Translations under genes and position numbers: made by a program
Notes under the pieces: model-generated
What the model saw: only the letters and a program-made list of their open reading frames with translations
Databases searched by the model: none
Told to the model about the DNA's origin: nothing
In this document: one piece after another, positions 1,320-21,465 of the stretch
Layout of the letters: every line of letters starts with the position of its first letter
Position numbering within the stretch: position 1 is the first letter of the stretch
Source: a virus
Virus record (IMG/VR): IMGVR_UViG_3300032285_004504
Location: 1 to 22,115 of that record
Length of the DNA stretch: 22,115 nucleotides
Reading direction: 5' to 3' (one strand)

Positions 1320-2063
1320 ATGGAAGACCAATCAAGAGAATACGGACAAAGAGATTTCACATTACCACATGACGTAGTACCGCTACCATCAGAAGGTATA
1401 TTTTATAAAAACAAAAAGAAATCTGTTAAAGTTGGTTATTTAACTGCCAACGATGAAAACACTTTAATGGGTGGTGTTACAGATATTACCACAACATTAT
1501 TAAGAAATAAAATTTACGAACCAGATTTAAGAGTGGAAGATATGTTAGAAGGAGATGTAGAGTCGATTCTAATATTTTTGAGAAATACTTCGTTTGGGCC
1601 TGAAATGGAAATAACAGTTACAGACCCTGCAACAAGAAAACCTTTCCAAACTACTGTTGATTTAAGTCAGTTAACAATCATTAAAGGACAATCACCAAAT
1701 GAGGATGGTACGTTCACAATATCGTTACCTAAGTCACAAGTTTCTGCTAAAATTAAGCCGTTAACTTATGGTGAGTTAATGGAAATACAAAGATTGGGAG
1801 ATTCATACCCTCAAGGTAGAGTAGTTCCAAAAGTAACATGGAGATTGAACAAACAGATTGTTGAATTAAATGGTACCTTAGATAAGGCTGAAATTGCTAA
1901 GTTTGTGGAACAAATGCCGATAGCAGATTCAAAATACATAAAACAATTCATGGACGATAATGAACCAAGATTGGACATGAGAAAAACAGTAACGACCCCA
2001 TCAGGAGAAAAACTAACAGTCAACGTTGGTTTTGGGGCTGACTTTTTTCGTCCTTTCTTCTAA
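1320..2063 (+). CDS. 26: T4 gp26-like baseplate/tail assembly protein (tail chaperone candidate)
   Basis: The 247-residue protein begins with a segment typical of T4 gp26-like baseplate proteins: VVPLPSEGIFYKNKK near residues 19-33, followed by VGYLTANDENTL. T4 gp26 is 208 residues, is needed for hub assembly and is not a major part of the finished tail. Position supports the role: the gene lies between the tube and the tape measure, where many tailed phages carry tail assembly chaperones made as a short and a frameshifted long form. The frame ends at TAA 2061-2063, and an overlapping +1 frame carries on to 2202. ATG 1320 is the first start that keeps the conserved N-terminus. It has no ribosome-binding site, because the terminator T run ends two bases upstream. 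Identity is likely; the chaperone role is inferred. Confidence 0.7.
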   Translation: MEDQSREYGQRDFTLPHDVVPLPSEGIFYKNKKKSVKVGYLTANDENTLMGGVTDITTTLLRNKIYEPDLRVEDMLEGDVESILIFLRNTSFGPEMEITVTDPATRKPFQTTVDLSQLTIIKGQSPNEDGTFTISLPKSQVSAKIKPLTYGELMEIQRLGDSYPQGRVVPKVTWRLNKQIVELNGTLDKAEIAKFVEQMPIADSKYIKQFMDDNEPRLDMRKTVTTPSGEKLTVNVGFGADFFRPFF

Positions 2064-2202
2064 TTACAGACAAGGACAAATAGATGAGTTTTACTATTTG
2101 AGTAAACTTATGGGTATTTCGTATAGTGATTTTCTGGTAATGCCAGTTTTTATGAGAAAATATTTGTTAGATAAATGGATTGAGGATAATAAAAAGGACT
2201 GA
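2050..2202 (+). CDS. gp51-like extension, probably joined to gp26-like protein by +1 frameshift
   Basis: The +1 frame relative to 1320-2063 is open from 2017 to TGA 2200-2202 but has no ATG before 2110. From 2062 it reads like a real protein: NYRQGQIDEFYYLSKL, then MGISYSDFLVMPVFMRKYLL. This helix-rich, P-x-x-x-R pattern resembles the small partner of phage tail assembly chaperones. A slip site is visible where frame 0 reads TTT TTT C (2043-2049): tRNA-Phe can move one base forward and still pair on TTT and TTC. The shift would give a fusion of about 243 + 50 = 293 residues. Alternatives are a separate 30-residue protein from ATG 2110, a TTG start in the overlap, or a sequence indel. The coding signal is good; the mechanism is inferred. 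Confidence 0.55.
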   Translation, partial: VLSSNYRQGQIDEFYYLSKLMGISYSDFLVMPVFMRKYLLDKWIEDNKKD

Positions 2203-2244: not shown

Positions 2245-4110
2245 ATGGCGGATAGTAATCAATCCATAGGGGATTTTTTTTCCGAGTTAGGTGAAGCTTT
2301 CCATTTCAAAGATGGAAAGATAAACATGGCTGGATTTGTCGAAGATTTAGGCAGTGCGGTTTCATCGTTGACATCATATTCAACAGAAATCAACAAAACC
2401 TTTGGTCAAACAAGACAAAGAATTACTGAGATTCAAACAAATCTTGCGGATACTTTACCTGGTATCACAAGATTAGGTGGTGGTATTAAAGATGTTCAAG
2501 AAACACTATCTAGCATTGCCGAAGAGAGTAATAGGAATGTACTAGCAACTACAACTCAAACTGAAAAACTATTTGCGGCTACTAAAGTTACAGGTGAATC
2601 TGCAAAAACCTTAGTTAAAGATTTCACAGACGTTGGTGTCGGATTGACACAAATGAATAGCCAAATTGAAAAAAGTGTAAACTATATTCAAAGTATTGGT
2701 GGTAACACACAACAAGTCTTTAAGATTGTTACCGCAAACATGGACCAATTAAACCGATATCAATTTGATGGTGGTGTTGAAGGGTTAACAAAGATGGCGG
2801 CTCAAGCTTCAATGTTAAGATTTAACATGAATGAAACTTTCAGATTAGCCGATAGAGTTTTAACTCCTGAAGGTGCCGTTGAGACCGCAGCTGCATTCCA
2901 AAGATTAGGTTTGGCTGTTGGGGGATTGGGAGACCCTTTTCAATTGATGAACCAGTCAATCAATGACCCATCGGGACTCCAAGATAGTTTGGCAAATGTT
3001 GCAAAACAATTTACATATTTTGATGACAAAACAAAAACATTCAAGATTAATCCACAAGGTGTTTTAACACTTAAAGAGTTAGAAAAACAAACAGGTGTTA
3101 GTGCAAGTGAAATGTCTAAACTTGGTTTAGCTGCAAAAGAAGCTGACCAAAGAATTTCTGCAATCAATGCTGCGGGATTAAATGTTAAAGAAGAAGATAG
3201 AACATTACTTGCGAACATAGCAAGAATGGGTGATGGTGGAGAATATGAAGTTGAAGTTAAAGATAAGGATGGTAAACAATATTATGAAAAACTAACAAAT
3301 TTAACACAAGACCAATTAGATGCGACAATAAAACAACAAAAAGACGGACCAAAAACCTTAGAAGATATTGCTAGAGCTCAGATGAATTATAGTGAGAAAC
3401 TTGTATCTGATGTTAAAGCAATTAAAGATAAGGTGGTTTATGGACTTGCATCACCAAGAACTGGGTTAGAAGGTTTGGAAGGTATTGGAAGATTAGTAAC
3501 AGATGCATTCAGTGGAGAATTATCTAAATTTGGTAAAACCAACGATTATAGGAAAGTAACTGAAACGGCAATTGATGATATTAAAGGTTTGGTGAAAGAT
3601 ATCAAAAGTGGTAAAGGTCTTGGTGAAAGCTTTGCCAATCTTTTAGATAAAGTGAATGACCAATCTAAAACGATGGGTTCCGATTTCAAAAAAGGAATGG
3701 ATAAAGTTCTTGATAATATCTATGGAAAAATTAGTGATAAAACATCAGGAGAGGTTTTAGCCAAAGATTTAATGGGACAACTGTTAGGAAAAGATGCATC
3801 GAAAGGGGCGGTAAAAACAAATGAAACAAAACCATCATTATATAATCAACTCAATGGAGGGGCGACAGCGGAAAGTCTGAGTCGAGCAACTTCTCAACCA
3901 TTAACAACAAACACAACACAAACTAAAACAAATGTAGATGTTGGAGGAAAAATTATGGTAGAGTTTAGTACGCCAAACGGTTCAGAACTAACAAAAAAAA
4001 TGTTGGATGACTGGGCAAATAGTCCACAAACTAAACAATATTTTATGAACTTAACTTCACCAAATAACCCAACAAAAGCACCTGTTAATACGAGTTATGG
4101 TAATTCATAA
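2245..4110 (+). CDS. probable tail tape measure protein
   Basis: The 621-residue protein is close in length to T4 gp29 (590), the protein that sets tail length. It is rich in Ala, Gln, Thr, Lys and Asp and is mostly helical in outline: long stretches without proline at residues 40-200 with repeated hydrophobic spacing suit a coiled rod. A glycine-rich hinge TRLGGGIKDVQ lies near residue 75, and a Thr/Asn-rich linker with many TNTTQT-type repeats (near 545-575) precedes a short C-terminal domain. No clear membrane segment or peptidase motif was seen. The place after the gp26/gp51-like pair and before the baseplate genes is the usual tape measure position. Start ATG 2245 follows GATTTAATA. The call rests on length, composition and synteny rather than a recognised motif. 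Confidence 0.6.
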   Translation: MADSNQSIGDFFSELGEAFHFKDGKINMAGFVEDLGSAVSSLTSYSTEINKTFGQTRQRITEIQTNLADTLPGITRLGGGIKDVQETLSSIAEESNRNVLATTTQTEKLFAATKVTGESAKTLVKDFTDVGVGLTQMNSQIEKSVNYIQSIGGNTQQVFKIVTANMDQLNRYQFDGGVEGLTKMAAQASMLRFNMNETFRLADRVLTPEGAVETAAAFQRLGLAVGGLGDPFQLMNQSINDPSGLQDSLANVAKQFTYFDDKTKTFKINPQGVLTLKELEKQTGVSASEMSKLGLAAKEADQRISAINAAGLNVKEEDRTLLANIARMGDGGEYEVEVKDKDGKQYYEKLTNLTQDQLDATIKQQKDGPKTLEDIARAQMNYSEKLVSDVKAIKDKVVYGLASPRTGLEGLEGIGRLVTDAFSGELSKFGKTNDYRKVTETAIDDIKGLVKDIKSGKGLGESFANLLDKVNDQSKTMGSDFKKGMDKVLDNIYGKISDKTSGEVLAKDLMGQLLGKDASKGAVKTNETKPSLYNQLNGGATAESLSRATSQPLTTNTTQTKTNVDVGGKIMVEFSTPNGSELTKKMLDDWANSPQTKQYFMNLTSPNNPTKAPVNTSYGNS

Positions 4111-9174: not shown

Positions 9175-9500
9175 TGGCGGCATCACAGTATTGGAATAGA
9201 TATAGTCAATTTTTACTTAACGGTGAACAAACAGTTGTACCTTTCGTGAATTTACCACAAAAGACAACTGATAAGGCTTACATATATAAAGTTGCTAAAA
9301 GTAGATTAGATAGAGTTTCACAAGAGTTTTACAATTCACCATATTTTGGTTGGTTAATATTACAAGCTAACCCTAAATTTGGAGGACTTGAAAACTATAT
9401 TTATGACGGTGCTATATTGATTATTCCATTTCCTCTACTACCATCTCTACAAGATTATAAGGCGGCGGTAGAAAATCATTTTTATTATTATGGCAGGTAA
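9174..9500 (+). CDS. 53: baseplate wedge protein, gp53-like with LysM-type fold
   Basis: This 108-residue protein matches the core of the T4 gp53 family, which clamps neighbouring wedges in the inner baseplate. The N-terminus reads YWNRYSQFLLNGE; then comes the LysM-like part: RLDRVSQEFYNSPYFGWLIL, a NPKF turn, and DGAILIIPFPLLPSL, where a glycine-led strand ends in IP as in LysM domains. T4 gp53 is 196 residues, so this copy is little more than the core domain. The ATG overlaps the previous stop as TAATG, and the end overlaps the next ATG by 11 bases. It thus sits in a tightly coupled baseplate operon with the tube-initiator-like and hub proteins. No cell-wall role is implied. Confidence 0.75.
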   Translation: MAASQYWNRYSQFLLNGEQTVVPFVNLPQKTTDKAYIYKVAKSRLDRVSQEFYNSPYFGWLILQANPKFGGLENYIYDGAILIIPFPLLPSLQDYKAAVENHFYYYGR

Positions 9501-12500
9501 CATTCAAGCGGATAATAGCGGAAACATTTATGTTGAGTTCGACTATAATAATATTATCGTAGTTGACCCAAACAAAACTATTGATAATCAAGGCAAAATT
9601 CAAGAAAGATTAGTAGACCATGAAAAATTGGTAATGTATGCTAACCTTGAGGCTGAAGTATTGCCAAGAACAAAGTTAGCTGTAGGTGCAACACCTACGG
9701 ATAGAATAAGAACTATTTCGGTGGCGAAAATAGATTTCTTAAAGCCAACAAAAAATTCTTATCTGAGTACAGGATATTATGATGAATTGACTGGTAATAA
9801 TACTACAAAATTCAAAGGTGATAATCAAATGATATCTACTGTTCAGGTTCCAAAAGACGGTAGTAAACCTTATGTTGTAGACCAACCTGCAGATTTGAAA
9901 AATATTATGGATAACGGTTTGTTGGGTATAAGTGATATTTCAATAACAACAAATAGTTCTTTTATTCCTTCGGTCAAAATTAAATTACAAGATGTACAAG
10001 GAAGAGCTTTATTCCAATTAGGAAATAACTCGCCATACGCAGCTTTCTTTAACTTACCATATCCACCATTCTTTTTAACTTTGAAAGGTTATTATGGACA
10101 AGCAATTAGATATCAATTGAACCTCGAAAAGTTCAATGCAAGATTTAATTCGTTTAGTGGTAACTACGAAGTAGATTTAGAATTCAGAGGATACAAATTT
10201 AATATTTTGAATGAAATATCCATGGGACACTTATTGGCATTACCACACATGTATACTCAACAATTTAGTGTTGCGCAAACACCAGTTGGACCACAACAAA
10301 CAAACAAAAGTGCAGAATCACAAGCCTCAACTCAAGTTGGACAAATAAAAAATAATGCAACTGGTACTGAACAAGTTGTTGGTTCAATATACACAAACAA
10401 AGGATACCAAAAAATAGTAGAAGTTTATAGTGATTATAAATCAAAAGGGTTGATACCACCTGATTTTCCAGAATTGACATTAGTTCAACTAATGAATAAA
10501 CTTCAAACGTTTGAACAAACAATTCAAGATTCTTATTTTAAGGCTGAAGTTGAATCTTTAACAAATATTAGAACTTACAAAGAATATCTTCAAGAATATT
10601 TTAACGAGATAAGGGGGGATAATTCTTGGTTTTCTAAATACTTGAATCCAAGACCAATAATTTTGACTAACAATTCTGGTAAGGTTTATGTGTTTAACAA
10701 CATAGACTTAAAAGATAAAGATGATGCTATTGAAAGACTTAAAAATGATATCAAAGTATTCAATCAATATTTGGCAGGAAACCCAACTTTAGGAGATGCT
10801 GGACCATCTAAGATTCCAAACCCTATAAATTATGATACTATAGTTTTTTCAACACCATCATTCCAACAAATAGATTGGGCTGCAACAACAACACAACAAA
10901 CAGGGATTCCTAACCCCGACAAAGCTCAACAACAAAAAGTTATTGATAGTTATTCAGGTTTGTTCACACCCGTAGTTGCTAAAGATAAAAATAATAATTT
11001 GGTCGATGTGAGACCTAAATTTTTTATTTTTGAAGGTGATGGAAGATTTGACAAGACCATTGCTTCAATTGATTCTCAAGCAACAAAGAAACTACAAGAG
11101 TATGAGGCAGATATTAGTGCAAAACTTTTGAAAAAATTAGAAGACCGTACTAAAGGTTTAGGATTCAGACCTACAGTTAGAAATATGATGGCGGTTGTTT
11201 TGGCATCAGCTGAGGCATTTTTAAGATTAATGGATGATGTTCATACAAATGCATGGTCATTAAAAAACGACCCCGTTAGAAAAAGTGCAATATTAAATAA
11301 CATTTCATCAGCACAAAGTTCAGATAGTAGAGATAATCTTCCAGTCACACCACAATCATTATCGGATAATTCAAATTATGATTATTCTCAAATTCCAATT
11401 TACCCATGGCCTCAATTTTTTGTTGAAACACCCGAAGACAAAAAAGGTAGATTTCAATTGAAATACATTGGAGACCCTTCAGTTTCAGATTTAACACAAG
11501 GTTATTTATATGACAAATGGCCTGAGGTTGAGTTTGTTGAAGAATATTTGAAAGGTCTTACTAAGAAATTCAATGCTCCTGAAGTACCTGATACCTTACA
11601 AAATCAAAATTATACTAATAACATTAATATCAATGCGATTGAATTCCCGTCTGCAGGACTAACTTATCTAAATAAAGAAGAATTAAAATTCTTTTATGAA
11701 ATTTGGGAAAGACAATTTTTAACATCCCACTATTCAGGATTAATTAGAGCCAACTCAAATCAAATAAATGATTTGATTAAGTTGAACACGGAGGCTGAAG
11801 TTAATAACATTTACGATAGTATCAACATTAGTGCACCTTATCTTAGTTTGAAACTAAAAAACTATGATTTGAATGCACAGAACTATGTACAAAATCTTGA
11901 AAACTTTTCAAACGGAGGTACAGGTAAATCATACCAAGACTTCATAAGAGATTTCTTTGTTACGCCATATATCAGAACAATAACAGAAAACCCAACAGCA
12001 ATTCTTAGTACACTTGAATTAGGTCAAATACCACAGATGCACACAGACTCAGCGGCTTTGAAAAATTTAATTGCAGTTGCGTCGAACGATAAATTAATTG
12101 TTGATGTATTACCATTTTCAGACCCAAATTGGTGTTTGAATAACTTACCTGATGGTGCCAAAACTCAAAACAATGAAGTTTATAGTACAAAAAAATCTCT
12201 GACGGTTTTTGAACCAAGAAAGATAATTTCAAACTTCAACGATGTTTATAATTTTACTTATAATAGACCTGTCACAAACTTTTCGTATACTAACTATGCT
12301 AATCCAACAATAGATGCACTATATTATGTTAATAATGGAGTAGGACTGAGACCGTTTTATTTAACTAGATTACCAAATCAATTTGCCTTAACTGAAGGTA
12401 ATTGTAGTTATGTCTCGCCAACACAAACAGCATCACCATCAACAACATTACCTTACATTACAACAACTTCTTTGTTGAACACACCATATTTTGTAAATTC

Positions 12501-15500
12501 AATTCAGACAGGTGTACAAGGAATTAGAAGTAATTCTCCATATCCATTCGTACAAGCCGCGTATTTGTTTTTGAATTCATTACCCTTAGCGTCTCTGAGT
12601 GAGAGATATAAGAATTTGAATGGAACAACAATGTCTGAACTAGATTTTATATCATCTTGTTTTAACAAGTTTGGTGCTATCCATAAAATACCATACGCTT
12701 GGATGATTAAATTAGGTTCTATTTGGTACAGATATAAAAAGTATAAAGAGTCTGGAGTAGACATCCTCACAAACGTTTGGAAAAACTTTGAATATACTGT
12801 AAATTATAGTCCTGTTCTTAGTTCAACAACTCAAACATATGATTTTGTTTATCAAGGACAAAAGGAAAGTATTGTTCTCCAACAAGAAAGTAATGATATT
12901 ATAACAATCAATACAGGATTTTACCCACAACTGATGAACGACTTTAATGTATTCTTCAACGGGTATGAATTGTATACAGGATACAATAATTCAGACATCC
13001 AAAAAAGTATTGATTCAGGAGTTAAAATATTTAGTTTCCCCGATTCAAAAATTAATGGATTGAAACAAGGTTCTAAAAATTTGATACTAAAAACTTGGTC
13101 AGTACTATTACCTGACACAGAGTTGATTACTTCAAATTGTGACCCAAAAACAAATACAAAAGGTAACAAGTATTTTATTGTTCCATCATTTGGTTCTCAG
13201 ATAAACCAAACAATAGATGAGTGTGTTATAAATGTAACCTCAACCCCACAAACAGTTGTGAACTTGACTAACAACACAAGTATGTATAATGGTTCTGTTA
13301 GAACCATTTGGTCAACATCAAACTTTGGTTATTTTGACAATAATCAAATTGTGATGCCAACACCGTATGAATACATTAACCACATTGACCCTAAAACAAC
13401 AGACCAATCGCCATTCAAGTTATTGACTACTGATGATTATTCTAAAATAGAAGATATCTTCGGAGTTTTTGAAAAAAGAGATTTAGACAAATTCGAACAA
13501 GAATTTTTGAATTTCTGTAAACCTATAACAAATGCGGATACAACTCAAGATAGTGCACAATACAATGTATCTACAACAAATGCGAATGCTAATTTTAGAA
13601 ACTTCCAATCGTTACTAAGAAGCATGATGACTGTTCCAGCACCACCAAGCGGACAAAAAGATTTGGAGTTTTTCCAAAATACAATCAACATACAAAATGA
13701 ATTTGTAAAAAATGAAATAACAGCATTTTTACAATATGACATATTATTCAAGAATGGTAATCCATCTAAATATAGGAGGAGAGTATTTGATTCTTATTTA
13801 TCTTATTTGGGTACTCCTATAATAACTGACCCAATTCCGTTCAAACATTATGTCGTTGGCAGTTTACCAACAAAAGGTGGAAATGTTTTGTTAAGTCAAT
13901 CTAAACTTAATTATCCCGATGCTTGGTTTGCATTAGAAACCGAAGTAGGGTTTTCAACAATAAATGGTGTAACATATAGTTCTACAGGTTCATATATTAC
14001 CGACTTTTTTGTTGATAATGATATCGAATTTAGTGTAAATAATGTTGTTATATTGGCACCGTTAATTAAAATGTATGCAGCTAGAAAATTAGAATCACCA
14101 CAACTAAGTGCTGCACAATTCAAAAATCAGCTTAGACTATATTTGAATTCTGAAACTGAATTACAAAATAATTTCTTGAACTTAGTGTTGGCGGGAGTTA
14201 GATTAAAATTACCAAATCAACAACAACTACCTGCAAAAGTTATATCAAGTGCAACAAGTGGAGACCAAAGTAAATCTGAAATTTATGAGGTGTTCAAAGC
14301 TCTTAATGACAAATGGATATCAGGAGATGACTTCAAAACAAAAACTCTATTTGAAGACATGTTGTTTTTGGATAGAGCTTCAAGAAATATTGGAGACACA
14401 ATTTTGATAGATATATTTGATTTACAGGGTATGTTTTCTGAAAACTCTCTGAACCAAGTAATGAGTGTTTTTACTTTTATAAGTGGTATTTTGATTAAAA
14501 ATAATTTTGTGGTAATGAACTTACCAGGTTATGTAAATTTTTATAACATACAAGACGTTGATGGAACTACAATACCTCAACCTGAAGGTTCTTTACAATT
14601 TGCCAATAGTATGTGGGGAACATTCTTGGATGTTGATTATAGAAATTCAGGTCCAAAGATGGTTTCTTTCTATGCGGGAAAACCTTCGCAATATTTAGAT
14701 TTACCAAAAGGGAATTTTAGGTATAGAGACGATGCGTTTGAAATGAGAAGAGCATCCGAAAATCCATTACTTGAAAATCAGCAAAACAAAAAAGATTGGG
14801 CTTTATCAAACAGATGTGTTGGATTTAATATTGATATGGGTATAAGAAATCAAAATATATTTTATTCATTCAGTGTTTCTCAAGAAAACGGAACCGCAAC
14901 ATCTGAGGTAATCAACACTCAATTGACTATGGTGAATAATGCGACAGGTAGAAATGTTGCAACACAAAACGTAGGTTTATTTAATTTATATAAACAAAGA
15001 AGTTATAGAGCGACGGTAACTTGTTTAGGTAATGCTTTATTACAACCATCAATGTATTTTAACTTGAGACATGTACCAATGTTTAACGGTCCTTACATGA
15101 TTTTAGATGTACAACATCACATAACGCCAGGAAATTTCCAAACAACATTTACAGGTGTAAGACAAGGAATTTATGACTTGCCATCGATTGATAATTTCTT
15201 ACAAAGTATCAATCAAAATTTATTAACTAATTTACAAGCAGTATTAAAAATCAAAAAGGATACTCCAACAGTTACACCAATCACAAATACTCAAAAAGGA
15301 AGTCAAGTTGTACAAAAGGCTAACAACACACCTGATACCGCAAACAGTTGTGTAAGTAATGTTGATACAAATCTTTACTCTAACTATCAAAACGTTAAAG
15401 CAACATTAACACCATTAACTGAATTAGAATTTGCCACTAAGTTGAAAAACTTATTACCTGGAAAGGAATCACTTCAAGCAATTATTTACTCAATATCTTA

Positions 15501-16596
15501 TATCACTTCATATCAAAATGACAGTAATAATAATGGTAAATTCAAAGGATTTAATAATAACTTTGGTGGAATTTCGCTATATTTGAATTGGTCTCCGACA
15601 ACGCAATACTTTGAAAAATCTTATGCTTGTGTTAATGTAAAAACCTCTGCATCAACAGCGGGAAAATCAGAACCTTTGGTTTCGTTCGTGACTGTTGATG
15701 AGTATATCAAATTTATGGCCGCAAGACTTGAAGCTAATGTTTCTAGAATCTTAAAAGATGGATTGCCACAGTATTATGTTTGTAACTGGCCTAAAGAAAG
15801 TGTCAGTGTTGATTATTATCAATCACATAAAGACGACTTTGCAACCGTGAGAGAAACAATTTCTAAGGCTTTAGATTCATGTGTTACAGTCAAAATTATT
15901 GTACCCGAAACAGGTAATCAACTGAAACAACAAATAAAAGCTGTACAGAATAAATTAAAACAACCAGGAGTGACACCAACACCATCAGCATTGCCTATAT
16001 TACCAGGTCAAACTTGTCCACCACCATTAATTTCTACCTTCTCACCATTAACAGGTAATACTGGAACTATTTTACAAATTAATGGTAGAAACTTAAATAT
16101 TGTTAGTGGAATCACTTTTGTTGATTCAACAAATACACAAGTTGTTTATGCAACCGCAAAATCTAAAGATATAACCATTTTGAATAGTGAAACGTTAAGA
16201 GTTAGTATACCACAATTTGGTGATGGAAAACTTTTAAGAAAGAGTAAAATTATTCTTAAGAGTCCATATGGTGATTATGTAAGTTCAAACTTAGGATTTA
16301 CAATATTCACATTTGACCCAGCATATACTGCGGCAGCTGCGTCATCACCTGGAGGTTATGCTGGAAATAGCCAATCAACAGCTGCACCAACTGCACCTAC
16401 CGTTAATACCAATCCACAAAACACAGGACCTGTGACGTTGTTGTCTAAATCAGAAACTTCAGTTGGTGGTAAGATAACTAATAAATTAACAGTAAATGTT
16501 AATCCTGATGCTGGTGTTTGGATTCTTGATAAGAGTGTTGAAATGAATATATCTGTATTTGATGTTATAACAAGTAACAATAATACAACACAATGA
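9490..16596 (+). CDS. giant baseplate hub / tail spike-like protein with lysozyme-like and IPT/TIG domains
   Basis: This 2,368-residue protein holds a hub-like N-terminal domain at about 146-255 (LGISDISITTNSSFIPSVKI, then YPPFFLTLKGYYGQ). A matching hub-like C-terminal part at about 1838-1898 (VTCLGNALLQPSMYFNL, then FNGPYMILDVQHHITPGNF) resembles the strands that close gp27/gpD-type hub folds. Residues about 1977-2160 look like a lysozyme or glucosaminidase fold: LQAIIYSISYITS, then GKFKGFNNNFGGI. No Glu is seen in the helix where the catalytic Glu is expected. Residues about 2176-2278 form an IPT/TIG Ig-like domain (PPLISTFSPLTGNTGTILQI, then NGRNL). It replaces separate hub, lysozyme and spike genes of T4. 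The frame stops at TGA 16594-16596 but continues open to 17214. Hub identity is likely; the lysozyme-like call is weaker. Confidence 0.65.
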   Translation: MAGNIQADNSGNIYVEFDYNNIIVVDPNKTIDNQGKIQERLVDHEKLVMYANLEAEVLPRTKLAVGATPTDRIRTISVAKIDFLKPTKNSYLSTGYYDELTGNNTTKFKGDNQMISTVQVPKDGSKPYVVDQPADLKNIMDNGLLGISDISITTNSSFIPSVKIKLQDVQGRALFQLGNNSPYAAFFNLPYPPFFLTLKGYYGQAIRYQLNLEKFNARFNSFSGNYEVDLEFRGYKFNILNEISMGHLLALPHMYTQQFSVAQTPVGPQQTNKSAESQASTQVGQIKNNATGTEQVVGSIYTNKGYQKIVEVYSDYKSKGLIPPDFPELTLVQLMNKLQTFEQTIQDSYFKAEVESLTNIRTYKEYLQEYFNEIRGDNSWFSKYLNPRPIILTNNSGKVYVFNNIDLKDKDDAIERLKNDIKVFNQYLAGNPTLGDAGPSKIPNPINYDTIVFSTPSFQQIDWAATTTQQTGIPNPDKAQQQKVIDSYSGLFTPVVAKDKNNNLVDVRPKFFIFEGDGRFDKTIASIDSQATKKLQEYEADISAKLLKKLEDRTKGLGFRPTVRNMMAVVLASAEAFLRLMDDVHTNAWSLKNDPVRKSAILNNISSAQSSDSRDNLPVTPQSLSDNSNYDYSQIPIYPWPQFFVETPEDKKGRFQLKYIGDPSVSDLTQGYLYDKWPEVEFVEEYLKGLTKKFNAPEVPDTLQNQNYTNNININAIEFPSAGLTYLNKEELKFFYEIWERQFLTSHYSGLIRANSNQINDLIKLNTEAEVNNIYDSINISAPYLSLKLKNYDLNAQNYVQNLENFSNGGTGKSYQDFIRDFFVTPYIRTITENPTAILSTLELGQIPQMHTDSAALKNLIAVASNDKLIVDVLPFSDPNWCLNNLPDGAKTQNNEVYSTKKSLTVFEPRKIISNFNDVYNFTYNRPVTNFSYTNYANPTIDALYYVNNGVGLRPFYLTRLPNQFALTEGNCSYVSPTQTASPSTTLPYITTTSLLNTPYFVNSIQTGVQGIRSNSPYPFVQAAYLFLNSLPLASLSERYKNLNGTTMSELDFISSCFNKFGAIHKIPYAWMIKLGSIWYRYKKYKESGVDILTNVWKNFEYTVNYSPVLSSTTQTYDFVYQGQKESIVLQQESNDIITINTGFYPQLMNDFNVFFNGYELYTGYNNSDIQKSIDSGVKIFSFPDSKINGLKQGSKNLILKTWSVLLPDTELITSNCDPKTNTKGNKYFIVPSFGSQINQTIDECVINVTSTPQTVVNLTNNTSMYNGSVRTIWSTSNFGYFDNNQIVMPTPYEYINHIDPKTTDQSPFKLLTTDDYSKIEDIFGVFEKRDLDKFEQEFLNFCKPITNADTTQDSAQYNVSTTNANANFRNFQSLLRSMMTVPAPPSGQKDLEFFQNTINIQNEFVKNEITAFLQYDILFKNGNPSKYRRRVFDSYLSYLGTPIITDPIPFKHYVVGSLPTKGGNVLLSQSKLNYPDAWFALETEVGFSTINGVTYSSTGSYITDFFVDNDIEFSVNNVVILAPLIKMYAARKLESPQLSAAQFKNQLRLYLNSETELQNNFLNLVLAGVRLKLPNQQQLPAKVISSATSGDQSKSEIYEVFKALNDKWISGDDFKTKTLFEDMLFLDRASRNIGDTILIDIFDLQGMFSENSLNQVMSVFTFISGILIKNNFVVMNLPGYVNFYNIQDVDGTTIPQPEGSLQFANSMWGTFLDVDYRNSGPKMVSFYAGKPSQYLDLPKGNFRYRDDAFEMRRASENPLLENQQNKKDWALSNRCVGFNIDMGIRNQNIFYSFSVSQENGTATSEVINTQLTMVNNATGRNVATQNVGLFNLYKQRSYRATVTCLGNALLQPSMYFNLRHVPMFNGPYMILDVQHHITPGNFQTTFTGVRQGIYDLPSIDNFLQSINQNLLTNLQAVLKIKKDTPTVTPITNTQKGSQVVQKANNTPDTANSCVSNVDTNLYSNYQNVKATLTPLTELEFATKLKNLLPGKESLQAIIYSISYITSYQNDSNNNGKFKGFNNNFGGISLYLNWSPTTQYFEKSYACVNVKTSASTAGKSEPLVSFVTVDEYIKFMAARLEANVSRILKDGLPQYYVCNWPKESVSVDYYQSHKDDFATVRETISKALDSCVTVKIIVPETGNQLKQQIKAVQNKLKQPGVTPTPSALPILPGQTCPPPLISTFSPLTGNTGTILQINGRNLNIVSGITFVDSTNTQVVYATAKSKDITILNSETLRVSIPQFGDGKLLRKSKIILKSPYGDYVSSNLGFTIFTFDPAYTAAAASSPGGYAGNSQSTAAPTAPTVNTNPQNTGPVTLLSKSETSVGGKITNKLTVNVNPDAGVWILDKSVEMNISVFDVITSNNNTTQ

Positions 16597-17214
16597 TTAA
16601 ATGTTCAGGTTACATTGAAAAAGAGTGACTTTGTAAACAATAATACATTTACAATAACACGTGATGATATTACACCAATATTAACAACAAGTGAGCCATT
16701 TAAGACAACACCAATTAAACCAACACAAGTAGTTACAATTCAATTTAATATTCTTGCAAATGCTGGAGATAAAGTGAAATACCCACAACCAACGGTTCAA
16801 TCATTTAATTTTAATTATAGTGATGGGACATCTACAACACCAACGCCAGTAAAAAATACATTCCCTGAGCAACCACTATCAATAACATTTGTTGGAGAGA
16901 GTGCATTTATACAAGGAGATGGACCTGAATATTTCAACGTCAAAAAGACAGGTGGAAGATATCTTACTTATAAGTTCAACGCACCTAAATTTCAGGATAG
17001 TAATTTAGTAAGTAAAATAGTTATAGGGTCCGATGGGTTACCAGTTTCAGCATCATACTTATTAGGTTCTGACACAAAATACACTTATGTTTGGACTATA
17101 AATTCTGTAGGTAAGTTTAATTTTGTTGTTGAATATTTACCATATGCTTACACATCACCAAATGGTGGAGAAGTGTTAAAACAAACTGTGGTTAGCCCAC
17201 CTTTCACTTTATAA
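16597..17214 (+). CDS. in-frame C-terminal continuation of the hub protein beyond a single TGA
   Basis: After TGA 16594-16596 the same reading frame runs on for 205 sense codons to TAA. There is no ATG anywhere in it; the only near-start is TTG 16615, with no ribosome-binding site. The text runs smoothly over the stop: VEMNISVFDVITSNNNTTQ, stop, LNVQVTLKKSDFVNNN. This looks like a beta strand, a turn and another strand of one domain. The rest is Thr/Pro/Asn-rich and beta-like (VTIQFNILANAG, LSITFVGESAFIQGDGPEYF, YVWTINSVGKFNFVVEYL), as expected for Ig-like or spike domains. It may be made by stop-codon readthrough, be a nonsense mutation (for example AGA or GGA to TGA) or reflect a sequence error. 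A separate gene from TTG is the weakest option. Total frame 9490-17214 would be 2,574 codons. Confidence 0.6.
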   Translation, partial: LNVQVTLKKSDFVNNNTFTITRDDITPILTTSEPFKTTPIKPTQVVTIQFNILANAGDKVKYPQPTVQSFNFNYSDGTSTTPTPVKNTFPEQPLSITFVGESAFIQGDGPEYFNVKKTGGRYLTYKFNAPKFQDSNLVSKIVIGSDGLPVSASYLLGSDTKYTYVWTINSVGKFNFVVEYLPYAYTSPNGGEVLKQTVVSPPFTL

Positions 17215-17246: not shown

Positions 17247-17471
17247 ATGGATTTAAGAGCATCATTAAACAATTACCTTGGAAAATCAGTTAGATATTCT
17301 GAGGAAGATAATGGAGATGGAACTAAACAAGTTTGTGACTTGGATACAGGCGATTGTTATACTGTAAGAGAAAGAGATGGTCTAATCGAAAGAGCGGGTC
17401 ATCAAACAACAATAAATAAAAGAGTTAGAGTTGAAACTGCAAGAGGAGTTAAGACTTTATTAAACGGATAA
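17247..17471 (+). CDS. small protein of unknown function
   Basis: I do not recognise this 74-residue protein. It is charged and soluble-looking, with no membrane segment or signal peptide. Two cysteines lie close together in QVCDLDTGDCYTVRERDG, and the C-terminal half is basic (NKRVRVETARGVKTLL). The strand-turn-strand feel of KQVCDLDTGDCYTV suggests a small beta domain. It starts with ATG after a TATTTATA motif and a T run, without a Shine-Dalgarno sequence, and ends four bases before the next ATG, so the two genes are probably co-transcribed and translated together. Its place at the end of the tail block suggests a minor structural or assembly part; that is inference only. Confidence 0.65.
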   Translation: MDLRASLNNYLGKSVRYSEEDNGDGTKQVCDLDTGDCYTVRERDGLIERAGHQTTINKRVRVETARGVKTLLNG

Positions 17472-20469: not shown

Positions 20470-21465
20470 GTGACTAAAACACTTTTAGTAGACGGAAACA
20501 ATTTATTCAAAATAGGATTTCACGGAGTAAGAGATTTATATAGTGATGGAGACCATTTAGGTGGAATCTATCACTTTATAAACATTCTTAGAAAATTCTT
20601 GGAGGAACATGACCACGATAAAGTGGTTGTATTCTGGGATTCCAATTCCTCCATTCGTAAATCAATTTACCCACAATATAAGGCAAATAGACGCCAAGAT
20701 ATGAACGAGTACAAGTATGAGTCATATCTAAATCAACAAGCAAGAGTCAAACAATACCTTGAGGAAATTTTTGTAAGACAAGTTGAAATGATTGATAATG
20801 AGGCAGATGACCTTATTGCGTATTATTGTAAAGTTGCTACTGATGAAAAAATAATCATCTTCTCAGCTGATAAGGACCTCACTCAGTTGATTAACGAGAA
20901 CGTCAGCGTGTATTCACCCATCTCAAAGCAATACTTCGGGAATGGGGATAATATCATCATTAATAAGGTTAATATACCTCATTACAACGTATTACTTTGT
21001 AAGATATTCACAGGAGATAAATCTGACAACATAGATGGTATTGAAGGACTTGGTGAAAAGACTTTAATAAAATACTTCCCACAAGTGCAGGAAAAACCAT
21101 GCACTGTCGAAGAATTACTCGATATTGCACGAAATATCCCGCAAAAGAAACCTATTAAAACATTAGTAAATCTTTTGACTGGTAAGACTAAATCATCTAT
21201 ACTTGGAGAAGAGTTTTATATTACAAACAAAAAAATTGTTGACCTTACAAACCCATTAATCACTGACGATGGAAAGACTTTAGTTGAACAAATTCATACT
21301 GATATAATTGACCCCACTGATAGGGGTTACAAAAACTTAATGAGAATGATGATGGAGGATGGTCTCTTTAAGTATCTACCTAAGGATGATAATGCTTGGG
21401 TAAACTTCCTCAAACCTTTTATGAAATTAACAAGAAAAGAAAAACGAAACACAAACAAAAATTAA
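20470..21465 (+). CDS. rnh: RNase H-type 5'-3' exonuclease (T4 Rnh / FEN family)
   Basis: This 331-residue PIN-like 5' nuclease removes RNA primers and 5' flaps from lagging-strand fragments; T4 RNase H has 305 residues. The metal ligands are visible: D8 in LLVDGNNLF, D57 in VVFWDSN, E111, D113 and D114 in NEADDLIAYY, D134 and D136 in FSADKDLTQL, and D183 and D186 in TGDKSDNIDG. YPQYKANR (67-74) gives the basic residues of the arch. DGIEGLGEKTLIKYF (189-203) is the helix-hairpin-helix DNA-binding element. The start must be GTG 20470: a TAA lies 12 bases upstream in frame, and the motif LLVDGNN follows at once. No Shine-Dalgarno sequence is seen. The next gene starts five bases after the stop. 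Confidence 0.9.
   Translation: MTKTLLVDGNNLFKIGFHGVRDLYSDGDHLGGIYHFINILRKFLEEHDHDKVVVFWDSNSSIRKSIYPQYKANRRQDMNEYKYESYLNQQARVKQYLEEIFVRQVEMIDNEADDLIAYYCKVATDEKIIIFSADKDLTQLINENVSVYSPISKQYFGNGDNIIINKVNIPHYNVLLCKIFTGDKSDNIDGIEGLGEKTLIKYFPQVQEKPCTVEELLDIARNIPQKKPIKTLVNLLTGKTKSSILGEEFYITNKKIVDLTNPLITDDGKTLVEQIHTDIIDPTDRGYKNLMRMMMEDGLFKYLPKDDNAWVNFLKPFMKLTRKEKRNTNKN

What the first reader, a model, noticed from the sequence alone, without database searches (positions are those of the whole stretch)
16570..17214. Single TGA inside an otherwise continuous hub reading frame: readthrough or nonsense mutation
The 2,368-residue hub frame stops at TGA 16594-16596, yet the same frame stays open for 205 more codons. 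The continuation has no ATG at all and only a TTG as possible start. The residues on both sides read as one beta-rich domain. The stop context is CAA TGA TTA, and among recognised reading frames only this one and the frameshift frame end in TGA. A leaky TGA would give a minority of hub proteins a 206-residue extension (counting the recoded TGA), as phage Q-beta does with its coat readthrough protein. In T4-like baseplates such an extension could change spike tip or receptor contact.
Basis: partly seen in the sequence, partly recalled or inferred. Interest (0 to 1): 0.75.

Follow-up and report, generated by a model that had tools for sequence, protein, structure and literature searches.

The report
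Lone nonsense codon in tail gene
A very large tail protein gene of an uncultured phage carries one stray stop codon where its relatives have an ordinary amino acid, so it is most likely a recent nonsense mutation (or a sequence error) and not a programmed readthrough switch.

Summary
In detail: frame 9490-16596 (2,368 codons) stops at TGA 16594-16596, and the same frame stays open for 205 codons to TAA 17212-17214. Chance does not explain that.

Relatives settle the meaning. In 6 of 6 close-relative contigs the "extension" continues the hub frame through a sense (arginine) codon; two hold the whole gene unbroken. In a wider alignment, 50 of 68 rows besides the window have a residue in the TGA column, and all 50 codons are sense. 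Most hubs end elsewhere: near the end of an IPT/TIG-like domain, about 71-97 residues past the TGA, or about 191-215 past it. The extension is under purifying selection like the hub as a whole, so the stop is young, unreal, or leaky. Another hub record (L122) has a lone in-frame stop that is its only difference from an intact record over 27,815 bases.

I found no readthrough signal: RNA folds no better than shuffles, no UCA-anticodon tRNA in a 317-kb relative.

Verdict: ordinary one-base nonsense change or consensus error. Leaky readthrough is not excluded; nothing shows it to be programmed.

The parts
9490..16596 (+). Large tail ('hub') ORF, 2,368 aa, cut short by TGA
   Evidence: aligned along its length with intact 2,578- and 2,584-aa relatives; 6 of 16 family members weakly match PHROG 52 'tail protein'
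16012..16308 (+). IPT/TIG-like domain near the C-terminus (approximate limits)
   Evidence: weak: family profile A4 matches SGBP-B 7k44 (E 0.0022) and IPT/TIG-domain protein 5e7h (E 0.24) in this part; start placed, end judged by eye
16414..16866 (+). Following beta-rich region, interrupted by the TGA (approximate limits)
   Evidence: homologues L051, L053, L107, L108 and L126 end 91 residues past the TGA column; weak model places the codon in a strand of a hairpin (pLDDT 52)
16594..16596 (+). Lone in-frame TGA (codon 2369)
   Evidence: sense codon in 6 of 6 close-relative contigs and in 50 of 50 hub rows with a residue in this column
16597..17214 (+). Cut-off C-terminal part of the same gene, 205 codons plus TAA
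   Evidence: 91-92% (3 contigs) and 68% (3 contigs) identical to the C-terminus of relatives; dN/dS 0.083 against L008
16615..16617 (+). TTG where the 6 close-relative contigs have an in-frame ATG (Met); argues against restart
17247..17471 (+). Next gene (74 aa), intact; also follows the hub in the close relatives
   Evidence: 98.6-100% identical in 7 loci from the 6 close-relative contigs

Best explanation
The TGA is a one-base nonsense substitution in an arginine codon of a single long tail-protein gene (9490-17214). The downstream 'readthrough extension' is the normal C-terminal 205 residues of that protein. Either the sampled phage lineage recently acquired the stop, so that ordinary termination gives a protein lacking the rest of one beta-rich region and the terminal region, or the assembled consensus carries a wrong or minority base. 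Shown: relatives are continuous with a sense codon, the change was seen only here, and the extension is not decaying. Inferred: termination at the TGA and loss of the C-terminal part in virions that carry it. Not resolved: mutation versus consensus error.
For: 6 of 6 close-relative contigs have a sense codon and a continuing frame; two of them hold the whole gene, 2,578 and 2,584 aa. A degenerate DNA scan of viral contigs that would have accepted TGA there found only the same 6 contigs, all sense. In the wider alignment (63 of the 80 loci, 5 close-relative loci and the window; 69 rows) 50 rows besides the window have a residue in this column and 50 of 50 are sense; they form 33 groups at 98% identity. 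dN/dS against L008 is 0.083 in the extension and 0.081 over the whole upstream part. On the window branch of the extension 8 non-synonymous and 14 synonymous changes were resolved, on L008's branch 6 and 14; about 45 non-synonymous would be expected if the whole branch were unselected, and the 95% bound on an unselected period is 22-25% of the branch. L122 has another lone in-frame stop and differs from intact L091 by that one base in 27,815.
Against: No reads were available, so the base itself is unchecked. Purifying selection on the extension would also fit continued translation by leaky readthrough, which is how PMC7918605 reads many in-frame stops with low dN/dS in bacteria (abstract; it calls TGA 'leaky'). 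The rate comparison is uneven: the 400 codons just upstream have dN/dS 0.221 against L008, and the extension has 0.198 against L010 and 0.207 against L006; 27 of 70 differences could not be placed on a branch. The alignment at the TGA column is gap-rich for distant rows. 11 of the 13 other window ORFs could be compared with relatives, one of them only in part, and none is broken, so the contig is not generally decayed or error-rich.
Confidence: 0.93

Rival explanations
1. Programmed or tolerated UGA readthrough: a minority of hub proteins receives the 206-residue extension, and short and long forms both assemble, as in Q-beta A1.
For: The extension is conserved with dN/dS 0.083 against L008. 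TGA is described as leaky in bacteria, with tryptophan inserted (PMC7918605 passage). The 317-kb relative encodes a tRNA-Trp(CCA). 12 hubs of the family end naturally at 2,259-2,268 aa without this part, so a short form might assemble.
Against: The stop was seen in this record only: 0 of 50 other hub rows with a residue there have one. RNA at the stop folds no better than shuffles (z 0.61, -0.59, -0.07). No UCA anticodon among 20 tRNAs called by ARAGORN in the stretches of the 317-kb relative that hold its Rfam tRNA hits, and the one further Rfam hit shows none by eye. No Rfam family in the window. The TGA lies at none of the common natural ends. Purifying selection is also the expected history of an intact gene.
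Confidence: 0.04
2. Gene fission: the TGA ends one gene and the downstream part is made as a separate protein by restart at TTG 16615 or a later GTG.
For: Only 18 bases lie between the stop and the TTG; an AGG lies a few bases before the TTG. GTG codons are in frame further on.
Against: The 6 close-relative contigs have ATG where the window has TTG, so the possible start became weaker. No row shows a split at this place.
Confidence: 0.02
3. Reassigned genetic code: UGA is a sense codon in this phage.
For: TGA is rare as a terminator in the window.
Against: One in-frame TGA against 20 TGG and 58 AGA codons in 9490-17211. The 11 other window ORFs that could be compared show no in-frame stop. 4 of 51 family hubs end in TGA. 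No UCA-anticodon tRNA was found in the 317-kb relative.
Confidence: 0.01

Closest known systems
Isolated in-frame stop codons in prokaryotic genes (Belinky et al. 2021, PMC7918605; abstract and passages seen)
   Same: One in-frame stop in a gene still showing low dN/dS, with intact relatives. The paper reports such stops as widespread, over-represented in the category 'Mobilome: phages and transposons', and many as short-lived.
   Different: The paper treats bacterial genomes and takes low dN/dS as a sign of frequent readthrough, though it assumes that the vast majority are not functional recoding. Here there is one record of an uncultured phage, and I read it as a young stop or an error.
L122, a hub of the same family with a lone in-frame stop, against the otherwise identical L091
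   Same: Single-base in-frame stop in an otherwise intact long hub gene.
   Different: Different place (codon 1188) and stop codon (TAA); an intact record identical over the rest of the 27,815 bases exists.
Phage Q-beta coat / A1 readthrough
   Same: UGA followed by an open in-frame extension.
   Different: In Q-beta the arrangement is a fixed feature (recalled). Here the stop was seen in one record and relatives have a sense codon.

Membership tests
Programmed stop-codon readthrough gene (Q-beta A1 type) | In-frame stop conserved at the same position across relatives | tested here: not met
   0 of 6 close-relative contigs; 0 of 50 hub rows with a residue in the column
Programmed stop-codon readthrough gene (Q-beta A1 type) | Extension open and under protein-level selection | tested here: met
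   205 codons open; dN/dS 0.083 against L008; equally expected from a recently intact gene
Programmed stop-codon readthrough gene (Q-beta A1 type) | Stimulatory RNA structure or suppressor tRNA | tested here: inconclusive
   RNA folding z 0.61, -0.59, -0.07; no UCA-anticodon tRNA found in a relative's 317-kb record; the window's own phage is a fragment with no tRNA gene, so its own tRNAs are unknown
Programmed stop-codon readthrough gene (Q-beta A1 type) | Readthrough product detected | not testable with these tools
   no proteomics held
Nonsense substitution in an otherwise intact gene | Relatives carry a sense codon one base away in a continuing frame | tested here: met
   6 of 6 close-relative contigs; whole gene in two
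Nonsense substitution in an otherwise intact gene | Base confirmed by reads | not testable with these tools
   no reads held
T4-like baseplate hub | Detectable homology to a hub family | tested here: inconclusive
   no Pfam or PHROG match for the window ORF; 6 of 16 family members match PHROG 52 'tail protein', best E 1.3e-4; no hub among PDB matches

The most novel reading that the evidence does not exclude
The stop is a real, recently risen variant that is tolerated because low-level UGA decoding (for instance by a Trp tRNA such as the one that a relative of this phage encodes) still supplies some full-length protein. Virions would then carry mixed short and long tail tips, a transient way to vary host contact.
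Probability: 0.04. Interest if true: 0.5.

Novelty: already known. Interest (0 to 1): 0.1.

Why it matters
It removes a false lead: the '206-residue readthrough extension' is the ordinary C-terminus of a long tail protein. If the stop is real in the population, it marks a phage losing terminal tail domains, a part that the family naturally varies, which would matter mildly for host contact (inference). It also shows that isolated in-frame stops occur in assembled viral contigs: of 81 hub records whose start is in view (the window and 80 fetched loci, 27 of the 80 cut by a contig end), two carry a lone in-frame stop and one a frame break.

Tried and rejected
Programmed readthrough, gene fission and code reassignment were each examined and set aside (see rivals). 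Three hubs (L064-L066) end in TGA followed by 87 open codons, and two (L076, L101) end in TAA followed by 87. These looked like repeats of the pattern, but the 87 codons hold the next gene (homologue of 17247-17471, with its own ATG) lying in the same frame.

AlphaFold models of the C-terminal 372 aa (pLDDT 38) and of 138 aa around the site (pLDDT 52) were too weak to carry weight, so no fold search was run. Searches without a match: phages collection by protein for the C-terminal 468 aa (E up to 1e-3), the extension (E up to 1), the whole hub (E up to 1e-5) and the family member L079 (E up to 0.01); genome contigs with A1. Pfam gave nothing at its cut-offs. A PDB search with three close hubs gave only chance-level matches. 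Paper searches gave one paper that I used; the rest were seen as listings only. I make no claim about what is not in print.

Rows left out: one search returned 80 of 93 relatives. Of the 80 loci, 17 with under 2,150 aa of hub in the contig were left out (63 used). 18 of the 68 rows besides the window have no residue in the TGA column: 3 cut by the contig end before it (L057, L059, L078), 12 short hubs, and L063, L085 and L119. L085 (2,328 aa) does not fit the three common end places: it has 26 aligned residues past the column and none in it.

Full report
The window is a 22,115-base virus record. It holds a T4-like tail and replication block: tail tube (PHROG 4542), a baseplate-hub-like protein (PHROG 150), a baseplate-wedge-like protein (PHROG 7145, E 5.8e-4), three long genes without a PHROG match, a single-strand binding protein, a UvsX-like recombinase and an exonuclease. 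The nearest phages in the phages collection are distant: Flavobacterium phages 'immuto' for the recombinase (37%) and Microcystis phage Mel-JY01 for the tail tube (45%).

Observation. ORF 9490-16596 (2,368 aa) ends in TGA, and the same frame is open for 205 codons to TAA 17212-17214. By base composition the chance of such an opening is about 7e-8. The continuation has no ATG, but has TTG 16615 and GTG 16774, 17173 and 17188 in frame.

Close relatives. A search of IMG/VR with the 205 aa gave 6 contigs (three at 91-92% identity, three at 68%). In 6 of 6 the hub frame continues into this part and the codon in question is a sense codon for arginine. Two hold the whole gene, 2,578 and 2,584 aa with no internal stop; the other four hold only its C-terminal part. 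A degenerate DNA pattern over the site that would have accepted TGA found the same 6 contigs and no other; the tool warns that records very near the window may be left out. In these relatives an in-frame ATG stands where the window has TTG 16615, six codons lying between it and the stop. A restart would therefore have been weakened, not strengthened.

Wider family. A search with the hub alignment gave 93 relatives, of which 80 loci were returned. In 53 of 80 a stop lies inside the contig; 27 are cut by the contig end. Setting aside one with a lone early stop (L122) and one with a frame break (L105), 51 hubs end in TAA (33), TAG (14) or TGA (4). I aligned the C-terminal parts of 63 of the 80 loci (those with at least 2,150 aa), 5 close-relative loci and the window, 69 rows in all. 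50 rows besides the window have a residue in the TGA column and 50 of 50 have a sense codon; they form 33 groups at 98% identity and include the 6 close-relative contigs. 18 rows have no residue there. The alignment is gap-rich at this place for distant rows, so single residues there are uncertain; that the frames run on is not.

Where hubs end. 12 hubs end at 2,259-2,268 aa; five of these 12 were compared with the window, and their match ends at window residues 2,246-2,280, near the end of an IPT/TIG-like domain (the domain call itself is weak, E 0.0022). Others end 71-97 residues past the TGA column, or 191-215 past it. L085 (2,328 aa) fits none of these. The window's TGA is at none of the common ends.

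Selection. Against L008 the dN/dS (Nei-Gojobori) is 0.081 for the whole upstream part and 0.083 in the extension; the 400 codons just upstream have 0.221. Against L010 and L006, whose extension is of another allele type, the extension has 0.198 and 0.207. On the window's branch of the extension 8 non-synonymous and 14 synonymous changes could be placed, on L008's branch 6 and 14; 27 of 70 differences could not be placed. If the extension had been unselected for the whole branch, about 45 non-synonymous changes would be expected (P of 8 or fewer 1.7e-11); the 95% bound on an unselected period is 22-25% of the branch. So the stop is recent, or not real, or the extension is still made. The first two need nothing special.

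Control. L122 has a lone in-frame TAA at codon 1188 with 1,417 open codons after it, while L091 is intact at 2,605 aa. The two loci are identical over 27,815 bases but for that one base. Isolated nonsense changes, or consensus errors, thus occur in this gene in the same collection. L105 has a frame break near its contig end.

Readthrough signals. RNA at the TGA folds no better than shuffles (z 0.61, -0.59, -0.07). Rfam finds nothing in the window. In the 317-kb relative 21 Rfam tRNA hits pass the cut-off and one does not. ARAGORN tRNAs in the stretches that I fetched around them, including Arg(TCT) and Trp(CCA), none with a UCA anticodon. The one hit that it did not call shows no UCA in its loop by eye. 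The relative's record may be a fragment, and the window's own phage is one, so its own tRNAs are unknown. UGA is not a sense codon on this evidence: one TGA against 20 TGG in 9490-17211, and the 11 of 13 other window ORFs that could be compared with relatives are unbroken (2245-4110 was compared from residue 136 on, and the ORFs 2-667 and 759-1247 were not compared).

Conclusion. This is one long tail gene with a single-base nonsense codon seen in no other record, either a young mutation or a wrong base in the assembly. What would follow in the phage (a protein without its last 206 residues) is inference. Belinky et al. 2021 (PMC7918605; abstract and passages) describe in-frame stops as widespread in prokaryotic genes, over-represented in the mobilome category and in many cases short-lived. 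They read low dN/dS around them as suggesting frequent readthrough, which is the reading I rank second here, while assuming that the vast majority are not functional recoding. The name 'hub' rests on gene order and weak matches.

The odds did not need to change.

Noticed in passing
window 2017-2202 (+): A second frame overlaps the end of ORF 1320-2063 (stretch GACTTTTTTCGTC) and ends in TGA. It is conserved at protein level (93% and 85%) in the two relatives fetched for this region, which would fit a programmed frameshift before the tape-measure-like gene.
   Followed up: partly
window 21449-21453: L005/L010 (one contig) and L007 have about 750 extra bases here, at the end of the exonuclease gene; the window and L009 lack them. 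Perhaps a small mobile or optional gene.
   Followed up: no
window 16850-17214 (approximate): The last part of the hub exists as two allele types: window, L002, L003 and L004 against L005, L006 and L007 (68% identity to the window), while the whole hub is about 92% identical to L008 and L010. It looks like an exchanged tip module.
   Followed up: partly
L069-L076, L080, L101, L106, L128: 12 hubs end naturally at 2,259-2,268 aa, near the end of an IPT/TIG-like domain, so the C-terminal part is optional in the family.
   Followed up: partly
L122 10001-17815, compared with L091: Lone in-frame TAA at hub codon 1188; the only difference from L091 in 27,815 bases.
   Followed up: yes
L047 (G001 131000-140000): The 317-kb relative carries 18 tRNA genes within 9 kb.
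   Followed up: no
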